From: Chloroflexota bacterium
GTDB lineage: Bacteria > Chloroflexota > Anaerolineae > Anaerolineales > Anaerolineaceae
NCBI GenBank assembly: GCA_021825925.1
Contig: JAKAFP010000001.1
Location: forward strand, 558,001-622,000
Direction of reading: 5' to 3'
DNA length: 64,000 nt
Position 1 is the first letter of the stretch. Every line of letters begins with the position of its first letter. The notes under the pieces were generated by a model, which was given only the letters and a program-made list of their open reading frames with translations, was not told the DNA's origin and did no database searches. Shown in pieces: positions 10,791 to 25,135 of this stretch. The position numbers and the translations under genes are program-made.

Positions 10791-11717
10791 TTGAGATATC
10801 TAATTACCGGAGTTGCAGGTTTTCTTGGTTCCGCCCTGGCGAATGCGCTGGTCGCGGAGGGCCATTCGGTAATAGGTATTGACGATTTATCCACGGGAGA
10901 CCCAAACAAGCTGGCCAGCGGTGTGCAGTTCAATCGCGCGGATGTCAATGACCGGCCCAAACTTTGGTCGCTACTTCAGGAAGTGGATTGTGTCTACCAC
11001 CTTGCTGCGCGTGTGATCGTACCTGAATCTGTGCTTTACCCCCGGGAATATAATCAGGTAAATGTTGGCGGCACCGTCACCCTCATGGAAGCCATGCGGG
11101 ATGTGGGCGTCAGGCGTGTCGTTTTTATTTCTTCAGGCACGGTTTATGGTAACCAACCCATTCAGCCGGTTACTGAAGACGCCATCCCCAATCCACGCTC
11201 ACCTTATGCAGTTTCCAAACTGGCCGCTGAATTTTATGTCAAATCCATTGGTTCTTTGTGGGGAATCGAAACGGTCAATCTGCGTGTCTTTAATGCTTAC
11301 GGTCCGGGGCAGCGGCGACCGCCGGTGCACACCCCGGTCATTCCGGGTTTCTTGCGCCAGGCCTGGGAGAACGGCACCATCGTCATCCACGGAGATGGCA
11401 ACCAGACCCGCGATTATGTCTACCGGGATGATGTGGTTTCCGCCATGAAAGCCGCTTCCTCTGCACCGGATGTCAACCAGCTGACCATTAATGTCGGCAG
11501 CGGAACCGAAATGAATCTGCGCGACCTTTCCAAGCTGGCCATCGAGATCACCGGCGGACACCCTGAAATCGTATACAATCCTCGTAATGAGGGTGGATTG
11601 AGCCGTTTGTGTGCTGATATTTCTCTTGCGCGTGAAAAATTGGGTTATGAACCCAAGGTATCCCTGGTGGATGGGTTGAAATTGACCTTCGACCAGGATA
11701 TCCGTATCAAATCCTAG
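10791..11717 (+). CDS. NAD-dependent epimerase/dehydratase (UDP-glucose 4-epimerase-like)
   Basis: The 308-residue extended short-chain dehydrogenase has the N-terminal 'GVAGFLG' NAD loop, 'YHLAARV', the catalytic 'SSGTVYG' and the 'YAVSK' Tyr-x3-Lys pair. 'NAYGPGQRRPP' and 'GDGNQTRDYVY' are sugar-nucleotide binding elements of the GalE/UDP-glucuronate epimerase group. It probably interconverts nucleotide sugars for surface glycans. Translation starts with TTG behind AGAGAGA, the only start that keeps the Rossmann strand 'MRYLITG' at the N-terminus. It stands alone behind its own promoter. Confidence 0.85.
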   Translation: MRYLITGVAGFLGSALANALVAEGHSVIGIDDLSTGDPNKLASGVQFNRADVNDRPKLWSLLQEVDCVYHLAARVIVPESVLYPREYNQVNVGGTVTLMEAMRDVGVRRVVFISSGTVYGNQPIQPVTEDAIPNPRSPYAVSKLAAEFYVKSIGSLWGIETVNLRVFNAYGPGQRRPPVHTPVIPGFLRQAWENGTIVIHGDGNQTRDYVYRDDVVSAMKAASSAPDVNQLTINVGSGTEMNLRDLSKLAIEITGGHPEIVYNPRNEGGLSRLCADISLAREKLGYEPKVSLVDGLKLTFDQDIRIKS

Positions 11718-11788: not shown

Positions 11789-12382
11789 ATGACCTGCCTG
11801 CCGCAGAGCTTTTACCTTGATGAGGTCACCCTGGTGGCGCGCCGTCTATTGGGTATGCGCTTGATCCGCAATCTACATGGCATTCGAACAGGCGGCATCA
11901 TTGTTGAAACCGAAGCCTACCGCGGAGAAGAAGACTTGGCCTGTCATGCGCATGTGGGCAAGACCCGCCGCAACGCCATGCTTTATGAAGAAGGCGGCAA
12001 GTCTTACGTTTATTTCACTTACGGCATGCACTGGCTGGTTAACGCGGTTACCGGAGTAAATGGTTTTCCGGCTGCTGTTTTGATCAGGGCCATCCTGCCC
12101 ATGGAAGGGTTGGAGGGCATACAAGCCAGACGAAGCGGACAGCCGCAAAAGCAGTGGTGTAACGGACCAGCCAAGATCTGTCAGGCACTCGGCATTGATG
12201 GAACCCTCAGTGGAATCTTGCTGTATCAAGACAATGGAGAATTGTGGATCGAAGAAGGAAACCCTGTGGCAGATGAACTCGTAAAGACCAGTCCACGCAT
12301 TGGCTTGGGCGCCACGCCGGAACCCTGGTTGAGCCTCCCCTGGCGATATTATGTAGATCCACAAGACGTGAAGGACTCATGA
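11789..12382 (+). CDS. DNA-3-methyladenine glycosylase (AAG/MPG type)
   Basis: The 197-residue protein is a complete alkyladenine glycosylase: 'LARRLLG'-like opening, the active-site segment 'IVETEAYRGEEDLACHA' with the catalytic glutamate, 'YVYFTYGMHWLVN', 'AVLIRAILP' and 'NGPAKICQALGI'. It removes alkylated or deaminated purines in base-excision repair. It overlaps the E1 alpha gene by 4 bp (ATGA), which places a DNA repair enzyme first in a 2-oxoacid dehydrogenase operon. The upstream -10 box sits six bases away, so it is probably leaderless. Confidence 0.88.
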   Translation: MTCLPQSFYLDEVTLVARRLLGMRLIRNLHGIRTGGIIVETEAYRGEEDLACHAHVGKTRRNAMLYEEGGKSYVYFTYGMHWLVNAVTGVNGFPAAVLIRAILPMEGLEGIQARRSGQPQKQWCNGPAKICQALGIDGTLSGILLYQDNGELWIEEGNPVADELVKTSPRIGLGATPEPWLSLPWRYYVDPQDVKDS

Positions 12383-13278
12383 CACTGGAAGAAGAATACT
12401 ATCGAGACATGCTGCGTATCAGACGGTTTGAAGAAACCGTACTTGAGGAGTTTAAACGCGGCGTTTTTTCGGGCACCACCCACACCTCGATCGGTCAGGA
12501 AGCCGATGCAGTTGGCGTGATCCGACAACTCCTGCCTGACGACATCATCCTCACCAATCACCGCTGCCACGGTCATTTTCTGGCTTACGGCGGCGACATG
12601 CGCGCCTTGTGTGCTGAATTGATGGGCAGGCAAACCGGTGTCTGCGGCGGACGCGGTGGTTCGCAACATATCCACTACAAGAATCTTTATTCCAACGGCG
12701 TGCAGGGTGGCATTGTCCCCATAGCAGTGGGCATGGCGCTGGCCGAAAAGCAAAAAAAATCAGACGCGGCTGTCACAGTTTTTATTGGAGATGGCACGCT
12801 GGGAGAAGGCGTGATCTACGAAGCCTTTAATATGGCCGGTTTATGGTCTGCGCCGCTGTTGATCGTAGTCGAAAACAATCACATTGCCCAAACCACCCCC
12901 ACCGACTTTGCCCTGGCTGGCGACGTGCGCATGCGTTTTCAGGCTTTTGGCATTCCTGCGCTTGAACTCGATACCAGCGACGTAATGGAAATCGCCGGCA
13001 ATTCTTTTCAATTAATGCGTGAAGTACATGAAGATTACTCTCCGCGGGCGTTGATCCTGAATACCCAGCGGTTTGGCCCGCACTCCAAGGGGGATGACAC
13101 CCGACCCGAAGATGTTGTGGCCCTGCTCAAAGAACAGCGCGACCCCATCACCTTGATGGAAAAGCGGCTCTCGGCCGATTTTGTTGACAGCATCCGTGCT
13201 GCTGTGGAGCAGGAAGTAAAAATGGCTTTTGAAACTGCCATGGGCGATCCCATAGCCAGTATGGAGGGCAGGTCATGA
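12379..13278 (+). CDS. Thiamine-diphosphate-dependent 2-oxoacid dehydrogenase E1, alpha subunit
   Basis: The 299-residue protein follows the PDH/acetoin dehydrogenase E1 alpha pattern: 'SIGQEADAVG', the conserved histidines of 'NHRCHGHFLAYGG', 'GRGGSQH', and the ThDP/Mg motif 'GDGTLGEG' ending in the NN of 'VENNHIAQTT'. With the beta subunit it would decarboxylate a 2-oxoacid and reductively acylate a lipoyl group. It overlaps the genes on both sides by 4 bp. The lipoyl carrier two genes on is fused to a sugar acyltransferase rather than an E2 core, so a role outside central metabolism is likely. The oxoacid cannot be told from sequence. Confidence 0.85.
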   Translation: MTLEEEYYRDMLRIRRFEETVLEEFKRGVFSGTTHTSIGQEADAVGVIRQLLPDDIILTNHRCHGHFLAYGGDMRALCAELMGRQTGVCGGRGGSQHIHYKNLYSNGVQGGIVPIAVGMALAEKQKKSDAAVTVFIGDGTLGEGVIYEAFNMAGLWSAPLLIVVENNHIAQTTPTDFALAGDVRMRFQAFGIPALELDTSDVMEIAGNSFQLMREVHEDYSPRALILNTQRFGPHSKGDDTRPEDVVALLKEQRDPITLMEKRLSADFVDSIRAAVEQEVKMAFETAMGDPIASMEGRS

Positions 13279-14309
13279 AAGAGACCGTGCTCGATTCACT
13301 TAACCGTGGTTTGCTTGCGGCTTTGCAGTCGGATCCTTCCGTCCATCTTTTGGGTGAAGACATCCTAGATCCTTATGGCGGTGCATTCAAAGTCACCCGC
13401 GGATGCTCAACCGCCTTCCCGGAGCGCGTGATTCCCACCCCCATCTCAGAAGCCGGGCTGGCAGGCATCACTGCTGGCATGGCGCTGCGGGGATTACGGC
13501 CGGTGCTAGAGATCATGTTTGGCGATTTCACCACCCTGATCGCTGATCAGCTTATCAATCACATTTCCAAATTCCGTTGGATGTACAACGATAGCGTCAC
13601 ACTTCCGTTGGTGATCCGCACCCCCATGGGTGGTCGCCGCGGGTATGGTCCCACCCACTCACAGTCTCTTGAAAAACTCTTTTTGGGGGTTCCTGGCATG
13701 ACTGTGTTGGCACCTGCCATTCTCTCGATCGGCATGCATTCACCGGGTGATCTTTTAAAGGATGCCATTCTCAATACGGATTCCCCCGTGCTTTTCATTG
13801 AAAACAAGGTGCAGTATCTGCAGCCCCTGCTCACCACAGAAGACCTTTCTGGTTTTGATGTAGAGATGCGGTATGATCCGGGCGACATCAAACAGCAGTA
13901 TCCGATCTATGTGCTGCGCATCAAGGGTGCGCCACCTGCATCTATTACCATGTCTGCTTATGGTTTTTGTGCCGAAATGGCCAGGCAGGCGCAGTTGAAA
14001 ATGGCTTTTGAAGAAGAGATTTTCTGTGAGTTGGTAGTGCCCACCCGCTTATCACCCTTTGCGCTACAACCGTTGATGGATTCTGTTGGACGGACCGGCA
14101 AGGCTTTAATAATAGAAGAGGGCACCCGCTCGCTTGGCTGGGGTGCTGAAGTGGCTGCACTGCTGGCAGAGTCATTGGGTGACAAACTTAAACAGGTGAA
14201 ACGCCTGGCTGCCAATGAAACACCCGTTCCTGCAGCCATTAGTCTCGAAAAAGGGATGCTGCCGCAGCAAGAGGATATTGAAAAACTCTTGAGAAAGATG
14301 AGTGCATGA
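13275..14309 (+). CDS. 2-oxoacid dehydrogenase E1, beta subunit
   Basis: The 344-residue product has the transketolase pyrimidine-binding domain with the cofactor-activating glutamate in 'TPISEAGLAGITAGMAL', then 'FGDFTTLIADQLINH' and 'RTPMGGRRGYGPTHSQS', and a C-terminal transketolase-like domain ending in 'IIEEGTRSLGWGAEVA'. These match E1 beta of pyruvate, acetoin or branched-chain dehydrogenases. It overlaps E1 alpha by 4 bp and the lipoyl-acyltransferase gene at its 3' end, so the three are translationally coupled and probably work together. Confidence 0.85.
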   Translation: MKETVLDSLNRGLLAALQSDPSVHLLGEDILDPYGGAFKVTRGCSTAFPERVIPTPISEAGLAGITAGMALRGLRPVLEIMFGDFTTLIADQLINHISKFRWMYNDSVTLPLVIRTPMGGRRGYGPTHSQSLEKLFLGVPGMTVLAPAILSIGMHSPGDLLKDAILNTDSPVLFIENKVQYLQPLLTTEDLSGFDVEMRYDPGDIKQQYPIYVLRIKGAPPASITMSAYGFCAEMARQAQLKMAFEEEIFCELVVPTRLSPFALQPLMDSVGRTGKALIIEEGTRSLGWGAEVAALLAESLGDKLKQVKRLAANETPVPAAISLEKGMLPQQEDIEKLLRKMSA

Positions 14310-14310
14310 A

Positions 14311-15402
14311 ATGCCTGATCTGATCCAGATTCTGGTTCCGCTGGTGAACCCCAATGAAAATGAAAGTCTGCTGGCTTCCCTCGTTGTAAAAGAAGGGCAG
14401 CAGGTTAAAAAAGGCGACCTGTTGGCCGTCTTCGAAACCACCAAATCCACTTTTGAGCTGATGGCAGAAGCCGCCGGGTTTGTATTAGGCATTCGTGCTA
14501 CTGAAGGGGATCTGCTCAAAACGGGTGATCTGCTCTGTTACCTGGCAGATCGCGCTGATACCAAACTGCCAAAACCATCTGTTCCAGAAAAACAAGAGCC
14601 CGCTTTACAGGCTCCTGCAGACCTGCGTATTACGCAGCCCGCTTTGGCATACGCCCAAACAAACGGCATTGACCTGAGTGTTTTTACTGCCGGCCAGCTG
14701 ATCACTGAAAAGATGGTCAAGGAATTAACTTCGACCAATTTGCCGGCAATTGACCCGAACAAGGTGATCATCTACGGCGGGGGAGGACATGCCAAGTCGC
14801 TGATTGATCTGATCCATGCCGAAGGCAGGTTTCTCATTCATGGCATCGTGGATGATGGCATAGCGGCAGGCACTCAGATCATGGGTGTGCCGGTGCTGGG
14901 TGATGGTTCCATATTAAATGAATTGCGCCACCAGGGCATTGGTCTGGCCGTTAATGCGGTGGGTGGCATAGGCAGCATCACACCCAGACTGAAGGTTTAT
15001 GACCGCTTGCGTCAGGCCGGGTTTGGTTTTCCGACAGTGATCCATCCGCGCGCTTTTGTGGAACCCACCGCAACGCTGGGTGAAGGCGGGCAGCTTTTCT
15101 TCAACGCCTACATCGGTAGTGAAGTTAAAGTTGGTTTTGGTTGTATCATCAATACAGGCGCGATCATTTCGCATGACTGCGTCCTGGGTGATTTTGTGAA
15201 CATTTCTCCTGGCGCCATCCTGGCCGGTGCGGTGACCGTGAATGAACGATCGCTGGTTGGCATGGGGGTGACCATTAATTTAAACGTGTCCATTGGCGAG
15301 GGCTGCCGTGTGGGCAACAGCGCCACCATAAAAGCTGACATCCCTGATAACGGAGTTGTGCGCGCCGGAACGATCTGGCCCATTGACTCAACCTCTACAT
15401 AA
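14311..15402 (+). CDS. Lipoyl domain / E3-binding domain / NeuD-type sugar acyltransferase fusion
   Basis: The 363-residue protein has three parts. Residues 1-80 are a lipoyl domain with the modified lysine in 'FETTKSTFEL'. Residues about 110-145 ('ITQPALAYAQTNGIDLS...ITEKMVKEL') resemble a peripheral-subunit-binding domain. Residues 150-363 are a NeuD/PglD-type acyltransferase: nucleotide-sugar-binding 'IYGGGGHAKS', then left-handed beta-helix hexapeptides with the catalytic histidine in 'IISHDCVLGDF'. The E2 catalytic domain (HxxxDG) is absent. The protein would accept an acyl group from the adjacent E1 and may pass it to an amino or hydroxy sugar. An in-frame GTG at 14302 is an alternative start. 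Confidence 0.85.
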   Translation: MPDLIQILVPLVNPNENESLLASLVVKEGQQVKKGDLLAVFETTKSTFELMAEAAGFVLGIRATEGDLLKTGDLLCYLADRADTKLPKPSVPEKQEPALQAPADLRITQPALAYAQTNGIDLSVFTAGQLITEKMVKELTSTNLPAIDPNKVIIYGGGGHAKSLIDLIHAEGRFLIHGIVDDGIAAGTQIMGVPVLGDGSILNELRHQGIGLAVNAVGGIGSITPRLKVYDRLRQAGFGFPTVIHPRAFVEPTATLGEGGQLFFNAYIGSEVKVGFGCIINTGAIISHDCVLGDFVNISPGAILAGAVTVNERSLVGMGVTINLNVSIGEGCRVGNSATIKADIPDNGVVRAGTIWPIDSTST

Positions 15403-20679: not shown

Positions 20680-21870
20680 ATGACTAACAATTCACCGTTC
20701 CTGGTTCCCATGTCCAGCCCCGATTTAACTGATGCCGAACGCGCCAGGGTGATGGAAGTGGTTAATTCTCCCATCTTGAGCATGGGCAAACAAACTGAAC
20801 TTTTCGAAAAAGCCATCGCTGAATTTGTGGGCGCCAAACACGCCGTGGCGGTGAACTCGGGTACTGCAGGGCTTCATCTGTGCGTACGCGCCGCAGGCAT
20901 CGAAGCCGGGGACCTGGTGATCACCACGCCATTTTCTTTTGTGGCCTCAAGCAATGTGCTGCTCTTTGAAAAAGCCATCCCTGTTTTTGTGGATGTGGAT
21001 CCTCTGACCGGTAACTTGGATGTTGATCTGCTTGAAAAAGCGGTTGCGGATCTGACTGCAGGTGGAGAAGCGGCAAAAAAGTGGCTGCCTCGTGAAGGGG
21101 CCCGGAACCACGGCAAATTAAAAGCCATCCTGGCTGTGGATGTGTTTGGCCAACCCGCCGATTATGAAAGAATCGTCAAACTGATCAAAAAATACGATCT
21201 GAAATTAATTGAAGATTCATGCGAATCGTTGGGTGCTGAATACAAGTCGGTAAAGACCGGTTTGTTTGGTGACTACGGTGTTTTCGCCTTTTACCCCAAC
21301 AAGCAGATCACTACCGGCGAAGGTGGCATGATCGTGACCAATGATGACAAAGCGGCTGGGTTGATGCGCGCTTTGCGTAATCAGGGACGTGCCCCCGGTG
21401 ACAACTGGCTGCAGCATACCGAGCTTGGCTATAATTACCGCATTGATGAACTTAGTGCAGCTTTGGGGGCAGTGCAAATGACTCGCATTGAAGAACTGCT
21501 TGATAAACGTCAGCAGGTTGCGGATTGGTATGCTGACCGGCTGGCCGAGATCCAGGGCATTGAAGCCCCCGGCATCGCCAGCGGCACCACCCGCAACAGC
21601 TGGTTTGTTTACGTGATCAAGGTCAAACCGGGGATGGATCGCGACCGATTGGCCGCGAAACTGACTGAAGCACGCATCCCGGTGCGGCCTTATTTCCTGC
21701 CCATTCATCTGCAGCCCTACATGGCCAAACAATTCGGTTATCGCGAGGGTGACTATCCGGTGACCGAAGACTTGGGCAAACGCGGTGTGGCGCTGCCTTT
21801 CTCGGGTGTTATGACTGAGGAGCAGGTGGAAACAGTTTGCCAGATCCTGCGCAATTGTTTGACCTCTTAG
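20680..21870 (+). CDS. DegT/DnrJ/EryC1/StrS aminotransferase
   Basis: The 396-residue PLP enzyme has 'AVNSGTAGLHL', 'TTPFSFVASSN', 'DVFGQPADYE', 'EDSCESLGAEY' and the Schiff-base lysine in 'FYPNKQITTGEGG'. Members transaminate keto-sugars on nucleotide carriers to give amino sugars. It is a plausible partner for the NeuD-type acyltransferase at 14311 and the epimerase at 10791 in making an acylated amino sugar, although they are not in one operon. A TAAAAT seven bases before the ATG may reflect a leaderless start; an AAAGGA lies 14 bases upstream. Confidence 0.88.
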   Translation: MTNNSPFLVPMSSPDLTDAERARVMEVVNSPILSMGKQTELFEKAIAEFVGAKHAVAVNSGTAGLHLCVRAAGIEAGDLVITTPFSFVASSNVLLFEKAIPVFVDVDPLTGNLDVDLLEKAVADLTAGGEAAKKWLPREGARNHGKLKAILAVDVFGQPADYERIVKLIKKYDLKLIEDSCESLGAEYKSVKTGLFGDYGVFAFYPNKQITTGEGGMIVTNDDKAAGLMRALRNQGRAPGDNWLQHTELGYNYRIDELSAALGAVQMTRIEELLDKRQQVADWYADRLAEIQGIEAPGIASGTTRNSWFVYVIKVKPGMDRDRLAAKLTEARIPVRPYFLPIHLQPYMAKQFGYREGDYPVTEDLGKRGVALPFSGVMTEEQVETVCQILRNCLTS

Positions 21871-21884
21871 ACTGACAGGCTAAA

Positions 21885-22793
21885 ATGGCTGAAACCTTTA
21901 CCTTTCTGCCAAACCGATCGCGTGGGATAACGCTCCACGTGATCATCATTCTTCTCCTCATGGGGGGATGCGGAATTCTGGTTTGGCAGGCTTTTCAACA
22001 ACCCGGCGGTATTTTGTTGGTGCTGGATTTGTTGGGAGCAGTGGTGCTGCTTGGTTTGCTGCCTTTTGTCGGTTATCGCGGATATGCATTATTAAATGGC
22101 ATTTACTCTCTAAAACGGGATGGTCTGCGCATTCGTTGGGGTTTACGCGCAGAAGACATTCCACTCTCCGAAGTGACCTGGGTACGCCCGGCGACGGATC
22201 TTGAAGTGCCACTCAGAATGCCGGCATTTTCGATCACAGGTGCGCTGCTGGGTTATGTGGACCACCCCGACCTTGGTCAGTTGGAATTCATCGCCTCAGA
22301 TGCCCGCGACTTGGTGATCGTCGCCACGGTGGACCATTATTTCGTGCTCTCCCCTGAACGCAAGGATGAGTTTGTTCAGCGGTTTCAGCGTGCGCTTGAA
22401 ATGGGCACGCTCACCCCGATGGAAGCTTATTCTGCCATCCCCGCTGCTTTTTTGCGGCAGGTGGTTCTCGATAAATACGGACGAGCCCTGATCCCGGCCG
22501 GGTTTGGCTTGACCCTGTCTTTGTTGGTGATCGTCGGTCTTTCCATCTCATCACGGGCAACGGTATCCCTCGGGTACGACCCCAACGGTGTGCTATTGCC
22601 GCCTGTGGCGGCCAACCGCCTACTGCTGCTGCCGGTGCTGGGTGTGTTGTTTTATATTGCCGGCACGGTGGCCGGGGTTTTCTTTTACCGCCGCGTTGAA
22701 TCACGCCCCGTGGCTTGGCTGCTCTGGACGGGTAGCCTGATCACTCCCATCATTTTGATCATGGCGGCTGGCATGCTGGTGGGAGCCGGCTGA
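21885..22793 (+). CDS. Membrane protein with PH-like domain
   Basis: The 302-residue protein has two N-terminal membrane segments (about 17-35 and 42-62). A soluble region (75-165) has the strand pattern of bacterial PH domains: 'GIYSLKRDGLRIRWGLR', 'IPLSEVTWVRP', 'HYFVLSPERKDEFVQRFQRAL'. Three or four C-terminal membrane segments follow. The function is unknown. The gene follows the aminotransferase by 14 bp and is followed by the DUF92 gene 3 bp later. Confidence 0.65.
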   Translation: MAETFTFLPNRSRGITLHVIIILLLMGGCGILVWQAFQQPGGILLVLDLLGAVVLLGLLPFVGYRGYALLNGIYSLKRDGLRIRWGLRAEDIPLSEVTWVRPATDLEVPLRMPAFSITGALLGYVDHPDLGQLEFIASDARDLVIVATVDHYFVLSPERKDEFVQRFQRALEMGTLTPMEAYSAIPAAFLRQVVLDKYGRALIPAGFGLTLSLLVIVGLSISSRATVSLGYDPNGVLLPPVAANRLLLLPVLGVLFYIAGTVAGVFFYRRVESRPVAWLLWTGSLITPIILIMAAGMLVGAG

Positions 22794-23826: not shown

Positions 23827-23884
23827 ATTGAACGTAATTTATGGGTTTTTTCTTTTAATGGTACACGATTTATTGTTAGGAATT

Positions 23885-25135
23885 ATGAAAACCCTTGGAA
23901 GTAAGTTATTTACACCTAGATCAAGAGGGCAGGCTACGCTTGAACTTGCGTTGACCCTTCCTCTCTTCTTGTTGTTAATAGTTGGTATTTTTGAAATCGG
24001 TCGCCTGGTCTTTATATATAGTTCAGTTCTAAATTCAAGTCGTGAAGCTGCCCGTTATGCTTCTGGAACAGGGGAAAACTCAGCAGGGACAGTTTATTAC
24101 CGTGATTGTCTGGGAATCACAAACCGTGCAATATCTCAAGGTTTAATCGTAAAGCTTACTGCCGCAGATGTAACAATTCAATATGATCATGGGCCGGATA
24201 GCAATGGTGAAAATACCGTTTTTGCATCATGCCCGGTAGCAACTAATCTGGCTCTAGGGGATCGGGTTATTGTTACTGTCCGCACGACATATCGCCCAAT
24301 TATAAATTTTAATAACTTGATCTCGTTTCCGATCACTTCTGTAACAACACGTACGATCATTAAAGATCTGGATGTCATGGGGACACCCCCTTGGACAAAT
24401 ACACCAAAGCCAACCAACACGCTCACACTAACTGTAACTCCAACCATAATTCCTTCTGAAACGGCCACGCCAACGCATACTTCGGTTCCCACCGCTACAC
24501 TTACACCAACCCTGACCCCCACAAAGACCAACACCTCGACAATTACGTTAACGCCAACTATTACGTTGACCCCCACCATTACTTTAACGCCAACGATTAC
24601 ATTAACTCCGACCATTACTTATACCCCTACAATCACACTCACACCATCCATAACTCCTACCCCAACAGACACACGCACTCCCACCGCAACCAGAACACCG
24701 ACTGCAACACGGACGCCAACACCTACTAGAACGTCAACCCCGACTCGCACACTTACTCCAACTCTGGTAAGTCTTTGCAACACTTGGACAGTTCAAAACC
24801 CGGTTCGCTTGACGAACTCCTGGTCATTTGATATTTATTCGAGCTCATCAGTGGACCAGACATATGTGTTCCGCGTTCAGGTTGAGTTTACCGGCACTTC
24901 GGTGCTGGATACGGTGGCCTTACGAACCAAACCGATTTGGGCTGACACAGCTACTTCCATCGCCGATCTAACCTTTCCATACACCTACCACGAAGATCTT
25001 TTAATTCCTGCCATTATTAATACGCCAAATCAATTAAGGCTGACGTTTACTGCTAATGATTTCACGATCAAGCATGTCAAAGTGTTTTTTGATAACGGCT
25101 GTTTTGTCCAATATTATTCCGATCCTTATCCATAA
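23885..25135 (+). CDS. TadE-like pseudopilin fused to a TPT-repeat linker and C-terminal domain
   Basis: The 416-residue protein starts with a TadE-type region: '[21 protein letters not shown]' membrane helix with the E(L/V) motif, then '[12 protein letters not shown]'. Residues 165-293 are almost pure Thr-Pro repeats (TITLTP units), a likely extended, perhaps glycosylated, linker. The last 120 residues form an unrecognised beta-rich domain with two cysteines ('SLCNTW', 'DNGCFV'). TadE proteins are minor pseudopilins of Flp/Tad pili; this fusion would project a domain from the surface. ATG at 23885 follows TTAGGA and is preferred over 23828. Confidence 0.8.
24545..24652 (+). repeat. 18-bp in-gene tandem repeat encoding TITLTP units
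   Basis: Six imperfect 18-bp units run from 24545, each encoding Thr-(Ile)-Thr-Leu-Thr-Pro. They make up the core of a longer Thr-Pro stretch (24381-24765) and could expand or contract by slippage. Confidence 0.85.

What the first reader, a model, noticed from the sequence alone, without database searches (positions are those of the whole stretch)
12379..15402. 2-oxoacid dehydrogenase E1 wired to a lipoyl-NeuD sugar acyltransferase
Seen: overlapping genes for E1 alpha, E1 beta and a fusion of lipoyl domain ('FETTKSTFEL'), subunit-binding domain and NeuD/PglD-type left-handed beta-helix acyltransferase; no E2 catalytic domain. Known: E1 acylates a lipoyl lysine, E2 moves the acyl to CoA, and NeuD/PglD enzymes use acyl-CoA to acylate sugars. 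Inferred: here the lipoyl arm may deliver the acyl group from a 2-oxoacid directly to a sugar, or load a dedicated CoA pool, as a self-contained glycan acylation machine. The DegT aminotransferase at 20680 could make the amino-sugar acceptor. I know of no characterised example.
Basis: partly seen in the sequence, partly recalled or inferred. Interest (0 to 1): 0.85.

Follow-up and report, generated by a model that had tools for sequence, protein, structure and literature searches.

The report
Lipoyl-armed sugar acyltransferase fed by 2-oxoacids
In many Anaerolineae bacteria, genes of the family that splits 2-oxoacids sit beside a gene that fuses a lipoyl swinging-arm domain to a domain of a sugar-acylating family; arm and neighbours are almost always present or absent together, so the arm likely carries the acyl group straight onto an amino sugar and would bypass coenzyme A.

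Summary
Window 12379-15402 encodes E1-alpha, E1-beta and a lipoyl / PSBD-like / NeuD fusion; no E2 catalytic domain was found in the assembly (84% complete). The set recurs across one order of Chloroflexota. Of 60 lipoyl-NeuD loci with at least 3 kb upstream, 58 have both E1 genes nearby; of 18 NeuD loci without the arm, none has an E1. The lipoyl lysine is present in 73 of 73 readable fusions, the catalytic histidine in 72 of 73. The one fusion without histidine (L044) is also the one for which no cognate E1 was found in its genome. Six of 22 genomes with a full-length fusion show no E2 domain. Neighbours are a PglE-type aminotransferase and a PglC-type transferase, so the acceptor is likely a 4-amino nucleotide sugar. 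Best reading: a 2-oxoacid dehydrogenase-like assembly whose E2 core is replaced by a sugar N-acyltransferase, acyl passing from dihydrolipoyl directly to the sugar amine. Not shown: lipoylation, the acyl group, and direct rather than CoA-mediated transfer; arm-tracking residues in the NeuD domain do not prove loss of CoA binding. Ten literature searches listed nothing like it.

The parts
12379..13278 (+). E1-alpha subunit, 299 aa, ThDP-dependent 2-oxoacid dehydrogenase family; the only match to this protein in the own assembly at E 1e-8
   Evidence: PF00676 E 6.7e-47; single hit in own genome; GDG...N motif and loop His conserved in relatives
13275..14309 (+). E1-beta subunit, 344 aa; the only match to this protein in the own assembly at E 1e-8; member of a dedicated clade with signature MFGDF
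   Evidence: PF02779/PF02780; single own-genome hit; 68 linked E1-beta form one side of a branch against 12 E2-linked E1-beta, SH-aLRT 100
14302..15402 (+). lipoyl / PSBD-like / NeuD fusion protein (366 aa from GTG 14302, or 363 aa from ATG 14311)
   Evidence: AlphaFold2 mean pLDDT 92.8, pTM 0.67
14329..14544 (+). lipoyl domain
   Evidence: PF00364, own-genome scan places it at C13:572329-572544; hhalign to canonical E2 lipoyl domains 99.3%
14443..14445 (+). codon of the predicted lipoyl-attachment lysine (K45 of the 363-aa form) in ETTKST
   Evidence: K in 73 of 73 readable fusions of 74
14623..14733 (+). PSBD-like two-helix segment, predicted E1 docking site
   Evidence: profile alignment to E2 PSBD, helices 109-117 and 133-140 in the model; sequence; no Pfam hit
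14761..15360 (+). NeuD/PglD/PerB-type left-handed beta-helix sugar N-acyltransferase domain
15172..15174 (+). codon of the predicted catalytic histidine (H288 of the 363-aa form)
   Evidence: aligns with the His that is mutated in the PerB H141N/H141A structures; H in 72 of 73 readable fusions and 24 of 24 unarmed NeuD
20680..21870 (+). DegT-type PLP aminotransferase, predicted to make the 4-amino sugar acceptor
   Evidence: PF01041 6e-108, nearest NCBIfam LegC/PseC families but below their cut-offs; DegT within 12 kb in 36 of 74 fusion loci
10791..11717 (+). GalE-like sugar-nucleotide epimerase/dehydratase two genes upstream; possible precursor step, link unproven
   Evidence: PF01370 5.1e-60; GalE 165.8 bits, below cut-off 262.3

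Best explanation
The three genes encode an E1 pair of the 2-oxoacid dehydrogenase family and a protein that fuses a lipoyl domain to a NeuD-family sugar acyltransferase domain, and the lipoyl arm likely carries the acyl group from E1 straight to the 4-amino group of a nucleotide sugar. Shown by calls: the domains, their fusion, the conserved lysine and histidine, the near-complete joint presence or absence of arm and E1 pair, and no E2 domain found in this assembly. Inferred steps: (1) the lysine is lipoylated by the genome's one LplA/LipB-family gene product; (2) E1 docks on the PSBD-like segment, decarboxylates a 2-oxoacid and leaves S-acyl-dihydrolipoyl; (3) the arm enters the groove of the NeuD trimer where CoA sits in PerB and PglD, and H288 activates the sugar amine; (4) an E3 encoded elsewhere reoxidises the arm; (5) the acceptor is a DegT product and the acylated sugar goes to a lipid carrier through a PglC-type transferase. 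In effect the E2 core is swapped for a sugar N-acyltransferase. The acyl group is unknown; that it is not acetyl is a guess, since acetyl-CoA could serve an ordinary NeuD.
For: Joint occurrence: of 60 unique fusion loci (window included) with at least 3 kb upstream, 58 have both E1 genes within 8.5 kb on the same strand; 12 of the other 14, with less upstream sequence, show at least one; of 18 NeuD-only loci with at least 3 kb upstream none has either. Exceptions: in L030 a cognate E1-alpha (61%) is on another contig; L044, with no cognate E1 found in its genome, is also the only fusion of 73 readable whose catalytic His is replaced (Gln), which fits decay of the whole function. Same-place contrasts: L025 has PGT-E1-E1-LipNeuD-DegT, L074 PGT-NeuD-DegT with shared flanks; L072 has the window's GalE-3mg--Nramp order without E1 or arm. 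NeuD-only L067 and L072 fall inside a 15-row clade with the window (SH-aLRT 95), which fits joint loss. No E2 domain: 6 of 22 genomes with full-length fusion have none. Own genome: one E3 over cut-off, one ligase-family gene, one GcvH. Lysine 73 of 73. Dedicated E1-beta clade, SH-aLRT 100. Sugar context: DegT 36 of 74, PGT 30 of 74, either 49 of 74 within 12 kb; an own-genome PGT is 66% identical to a clustered one but unlinked. LpxD-ACP structures are among the fold matches, so a protein-bound thioester donor has precedent in this fold.
Against: No call tests donor or chemistry. The NeuD positions that best separate fused from unfused proteins (L315, F263, T282, R351) do not show loss of CoA binding: T282 and A284 match CoA-using PerB. 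16 of the 22 fusion genomes have at least one E2-domain match, some weak or partial, so in those acyl-CoA could in principle be made. GcvH also needs lipoylation (60 of 61 genomes), so a ligase gene does not prove lipoylation of this domain. L044 keeps the lysine without cognate E1, though its active site is altered too. Only 2 independent presence/absence contrasts rest on well-supported branches (4 on all branches), too few for significance, and the 60 loci are related. The PSBD-like segment has no Pfam hit. The lipoyl synthase search did not complete. No complex was modelled.
Confidence: 0.6

Rival explanations
1. CoA relay: the NeuD domain still uses acyl-CoA. The E1/lipoyl part makes that acyl-CoA locally, with the NeuD domain or an unrecognised protein acting as the E2 that moves acyl from lipoyl to CoA, and the arm only channels it.
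For: The NeuD domain keeps the fold and catalytic His of CoA-using PerB and PglD, and T282/A284 match PerB. NeuD-only relatives at the same locus presumably use acetyl-CoA (donor inferred).
Against: No PF00198 E2 domain in 6 of 22 fusion genomes. It needs a second acyl transfer for which no catalyst is seen. It does not explain why NeuD positions switch with the arm.
Confidence: 0.2
2. Substitute E2: the NeuD-like domain has become a lipoyl-to-CoA acyltransferase, so the set is simply a pyruvate dehydrogenase with an odd E2 and has left sugar chemistry.
For: Five genomes of the genus, the window's among them, show no E2 domain; E1-alpha and E1-beta score best against chains named pyruvate dehydrogenase E1 among solved structures.
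Against: Recurrent link with DegT and PGT (either in 49 of 74 fusion loci); the NeuD domain is above the family cut-off; unfused relatives sit in the same sugar cassette; 16 of 22 fusion genomes have E2-domain matches as well; 12 E2-linked E1-beta lie outside the clade of the linked ones.
Confidence: 0.1
3. Regulatory or vestigial arm: the lipoyl domain tethers E1 near the sugar pathway or senses redox, without carrying acyl groups to the sugar.
For: L044 keeps arm and lysine without a cognate E1.
Against: Lysine kept in 73 of 73 readable fusions and E1 active-site residues conserved; L044 has also lost the NeuD catalytic His, so it reads as decay (odds lowered from 0.07 to 0.05 for this reason).
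Confidence: 0.05

Closest known systems
2-oxoacid dehydrogenase complexes (PDH, BCKDH; E1-E2-E3)
   Same: E1-alpha/beta, N-terminal lipoyl domain, flexible linker, PSBD-like segment, then an acyltransferase core; E3 available in the genome. E2 cores and NeuD-family enzymes are both built on trimers (recalled, from no call).
   Different: The catalytic E2 domain (PF00198) is replaced by a left-handed beta-helix sugar acyltransferase; the expected acceptor is a sugar amine rather than CoA.
NeuD/PglD/PerB/VioB sugar N-acetyltransferases (TIGR03570)
   Different: Fused to a lipoyl arm and PSBD-like segment, and encoded with an E1 pair; several of the solved relatives listed are complexed with free CoA or acetyl-CoA.
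LpxA/LpxD acyl-ACP-dependent acyltransferases
   Same: Left-handed beta-helix acyltransferases that take the acyl group from a protein-bound thioester (ACP) and put it on a UDP sugar (recalled; LpxD-ACP entries listed).
   Different: Carrier is ACP phosphopantetheine, not a lipoyl domain; not fused; no E1.

Membership tests
NeuD/PglD/PerB sugar N-acyltransferase family | TIGR03570 above curated cut-off | tested here: met
   178.7 vs 160.8 bits
NeuD/PglD/PerB sugar N-acyltransferase family | catalytic His of the hexapeptide domain | tested here: met
   H288 aligns with the residue mutated in PerB H141N/H141A; H in 72 of 73 readable fusions, Gln in L044
NeuD/PglD/PerB sugar N-acyltransferase family | uses acyl-CoA as donor | not testable with these tools
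   no coordinates or assay; PerB-like T282/A284 kept
NeuD/PglD/PerB sugar N-acyltransferase family | genomic link to a PLP sugar aminotransferase | tested here: met
   DegT within 12 kb in 36 of 74 fusion loci; window DegT at 20680
2-oxoacid dehydrogenase multienzyme complex | E1 alpha and beta | tested here: met
   PF00676, PF02779, PF02780
2-oxoacid dehydrogenase multienzyme complex | lipoyl domain with attachment lysine | tested here: met
   PF00364; K in 73 of 73 readable
2-oxoacid dehydrogenase multienzyme complex | peripheral subunit-binding domain | tested here: inconclusive
   hhalign 70% to E2 PSBD, no Pfam hit
2-oxoacid dehydrogenase multienzyme complex | E2 catalytic domain PF00198 | tested here: not met
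   absent from the fusion and not found in the own assembly, 84% complete
2-oxoacid dehydrogenase multienzyme complex | E3 dihydrolipoamide dehydrogenase available | tested here: met
   one hit over cut-off, unlinked
2-oxoacid dehydrogenase multienzyme complex | lipoylation in the cell | not testable with these tools
   one ligase-family gene; lipoyl synthase search unanswered
LpxA/LpxD acyl-ACP-dependent acyltransferases | LpxA or LpxD family model above cut-off | tested here: not met
   TIGR01852 49.7 bits (cut-off 231.05), TIGR01853 48.4 (cut-off 242.5)

The most novel reading that the evidence does not exclude
A CoA-independent sugar N-acylation machine: E1 decarboxylates a 2-oxoacid onto a lipoyl arm and the arm hands the acyl group directly to a nucleotide amino sugar in a left-handed beta-helix active site, so the E2 core of a 2-oxoacid dehydrogenase has been exchanged for a glycan-modifying enzyme and acyl-lipoyl becomes a biosynthetic donor in its own right.
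Probability: 0.55. Interest if true: 0.88.

Novelty: new variant of a known kind. Interest (0 to 1): 0.77.

Why it matters
If true, acyl-dihydrolipoyl, otherwise an intermediate on the way to acyl-CoA, is used directly to decorate a sugar. That would give a route from 2-oxoacids to sugar N-acyl groups without a CoA thioester. It would show that the swinging-arm architecture of 2-oxoacid dehydrogenases can be moved onto an unrelated acyltransferase fold, add a class of lipoylated protein beyond the E2s, E3-binding protein and GcvH, and explain E1-bearing genomes that show no E2. The naturally armed and unarmed versions of the same gene cassette make the idea directly testable.

Tried and rejected
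Biotin instead of lipoate on the arm: the motif is ETTKST/A rather than the AMKM usual for biotin (recalled), and an E1 pair is the neighbour; rejected. E1 acting as a carboligase on a keto sugar, as proposed for AviB1/B2 in avilamycin (recalled): does not need a lipoyl arm, not favoured. Loss of the CoA site as proof of direct transfer: I looked for positions that separate 73 fused from 20 unfused NeuD domains; positions exist, but T282 and A284 agree with CoA-using PerB, so I do not claim it. Ligase presence as proof of lipoylation of this arm: GcvH is in 60 of 61 genomes, so it proves nothing. The first structure model, from 21 close sequences, was poor (pTM 0.39) and was replaced by one from 104 sequences. 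Chance neighbourhood: rejected by recurrence in different gene orders. Antisense ORFs over E1-alpha (cluster c11) treated as artefacts. Spread outside the order: of 400 sampled genomes of the phylum, 7 have the full-length fusion, all in the same order, with only the five best candidates scored per genome. The named scan used two peptide patterns, found 90 relatives and kept 80, whose titles name Chloroflexota or taxa in it. The two protein searches listed 120 of 2793 and 120 of 2060 hits; the eight listed hits that carry an organism in their name are Chloroflexota. Other phyla were not scanned otherwise. The other PF00364 matches of the own genome (two over cut-off, one below) were not identified further. 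Literature: ten searches, seen as listings with starts of abstracts, no paper opened; nothing describing this fusion was listed. They cover open-licence PMC papers only.

Four distant NeuD rows (L095, L096, L108, L109) were left out of the 20-row comparison; three of them are among the 18 unarmed loci counted. L075 (NeuD cut by the contig end) was not in the NeuD tree.
Full report

No E2. A whole-genome scan finds no PF00198 catalytic domain in the own assembly, 84% complete. The same scan over 61 genomes (own and 60 relatives) finds one in 51. Full-length fusions are in 22 of those 61 (counted by hand from the listed matches). Six of the 22 (G000, G005, G006, G007, G011, G056) have no E2 match; 16 have at least one, some weak or partial. 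The own genome has one match each to this E1-beta and this E1-alpha at E 1e-8, one E3 over cut-off, one lipoate-ligase-family gene and one GcvH.

Arm and E1 come and go together. One scan of named genomes gave 80 loci; stretches of unnamed relatives added more. After removal of eight duplicates there are 74 places with the lipoyl arm, the window included, and 24 with a NeuD domain alone. Of the 60 armed loci with at least 3 kb upstream, 58 carry both E1 genes on the same strand. Of the 14 with less sequence, 12 carry at least one and two have under 400 bases upstream. Of the 18 unarmed loci with at least 3 kb upstream (15 close relatives, 3 distant), none carries an E1; nor do the other six. 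The two exceptions: L030, for which a cognate E1-alpha lies on another contig of the same genome, and L044, where no cognate E1 was found in its fragmented genome. L044 is also the only one of 73 readable fusions in which the catalytic histidine is replaced, by Gln; all 24 unarmed proteins keep it. So the one fusion without its E1 looks as if it has lost its activity as well. This is one case and may be coincidence.

Same place, two states. L025 reads glycosyltransferase-PGT-E1-E1-LipNeuD-DegT; L074 reads the same with plain NeuD and no E1. L072 has the window's own order (deaminase-like gene, GalE-like, 3mg) followed by plain NeuD and Nramp. In a NeuD-domain tree of 97 rows the two states need five changes, and well-supported branches force at least two. 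L067 and L072, from genomes of the window's genus, fall inside the window's 15-row clade (SH-aLRT 95), which fits joint loss of E1 and arm (a quick tree with many weak branches). The test for independent contrasts has only two pairs on supported branches (four on all), those on supported branches both in the expected direction, so it is not significant by itself.

Conserved parts. The lysine is K in 73 of 73 readable fusions. E1-alpha keeps the GDG motif, its N and the loop His in 61 of 62 fully readable rows, one having S for the first G; E1-beta keeps E59 and H128 in all 68 rows readable at both. The linked E1-beta proteins form one side of a branch against 12 E2-linked E1-beta from seven relatives (SH-aLRT 100). 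They share MFGDF in 68 of 68 readable rows, which none of the 12 has. That suggests a 2-oxoacid preference of its own; which one is unknown. The catalytic His of PerB is kept as H288.

Sugar context. DegT aminotransferases lie within 12 kb in 36 of 74 fusion loci, PglC-type transferases (PF02397) in 30 of 74, one or the other in 49 of 74, and in 19 of 24 unarmed loci; DegT is directly adjacent in 18 of 74. In the own genome the best-matching PGT (66% identical to that of L023) is unlinked at C2:4521, and a 669-aa frame with the PglF-type dehydratase domain is at C10:147105. The acceptor is therefore likely a UDP-4-amino-4,6-dideoxy sugar as in the bacillosamine route (pathway recalled).

Mechanism. 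Shown: parts, fusion, co-occurrence, conserved residues, no E2 found. Inferred: lipoylation, E1 docking on the 105-141 segment (profile match 70%), reductive acylation, direct transfer to the sugar amine, reoxidation by E3. Direct transfer is favoured because in six genomes nothing recognisable could pass acyl from lipoyl to CoA, and because LpxA/LpxD show that this fold takes acyl from a protein-bound thioester (recalled; LpxD-ACP entries). It is not proven: some NeuD positions switch with the arm (L315 in 73 of 73 fused against Q or R in 20 of 20 unfused; F263 69 of 73 against L in 20 of 20; T282 72 of 73 against A, V, S or N; R351, less strictly, most often R against mostly Y), but T282 and A284 agree with CoA-using PerB, so the CoA groove may be intact.

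Distribution. In 400 genomes drawn across the phylum, 7 carry the full-length fusion, all in the window's order. Two searches of a 5.8-billion-protein set gave 2793 and 2060 hits, of which the 120 best of each are listed; nearly all of those listed bear lipoyl plus PglD_N domains and, where named, mostly labels such as 'sugar O-acyltransferase' or 'acetyltransferase EpsM'. So it is common in Anaerolineae, and none of the labels seen mentions the arm.

Verdict. Its interpretation is the most likely one but remains a prediction; the machine also depends on E3, ligase and sugar genes elsewhere.

Noticed in passing
L044:9001-10089 / genome G041: The only fusion without a cognate E1 found in its genome is also the only readable one whose catalytic His is Gln; lipoyl lysine intact.
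   Followed up: yes
L022, L023, L034, L052, L073 between E1-beta and the fusion: A 423-432 aa protein with an N-terminal zinc-ribbon-like stretch (cluster c39) lies between E1-beta and the fusion in five loci.
   Followed up: no
window 21885-22793; a member of the same cluster in 23 of 81 loci: A bacterial PH-domain protein (bPH_5) recurs near the DegT gene; role unknown.
   Followed up: partly
L047:5605-6612 and 15 other loci: A UbiA-family prenyltransferase recurs near the fusion, often after the DegT gene (cluster of 16 loci).
   Followed up: partly
P0131: A 66%-identical relative of the L063 fusion without a precomputed PF00364 hit; could be a below-threshold or altered lipoyl domain.
   Followed up: no
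P0133 / L063:8986-10083: A listed 233-aa protein is identical to the NeuD part of the 365-aa L063 frame, on a contig of the same length; the lipoyl part seems to be left out of that annotation.
   Followed up: no
window 23828-25135: Protein with a TadE-like start and a long threonine-proline repeat tail of the TPTxT type.
   Followed up: no
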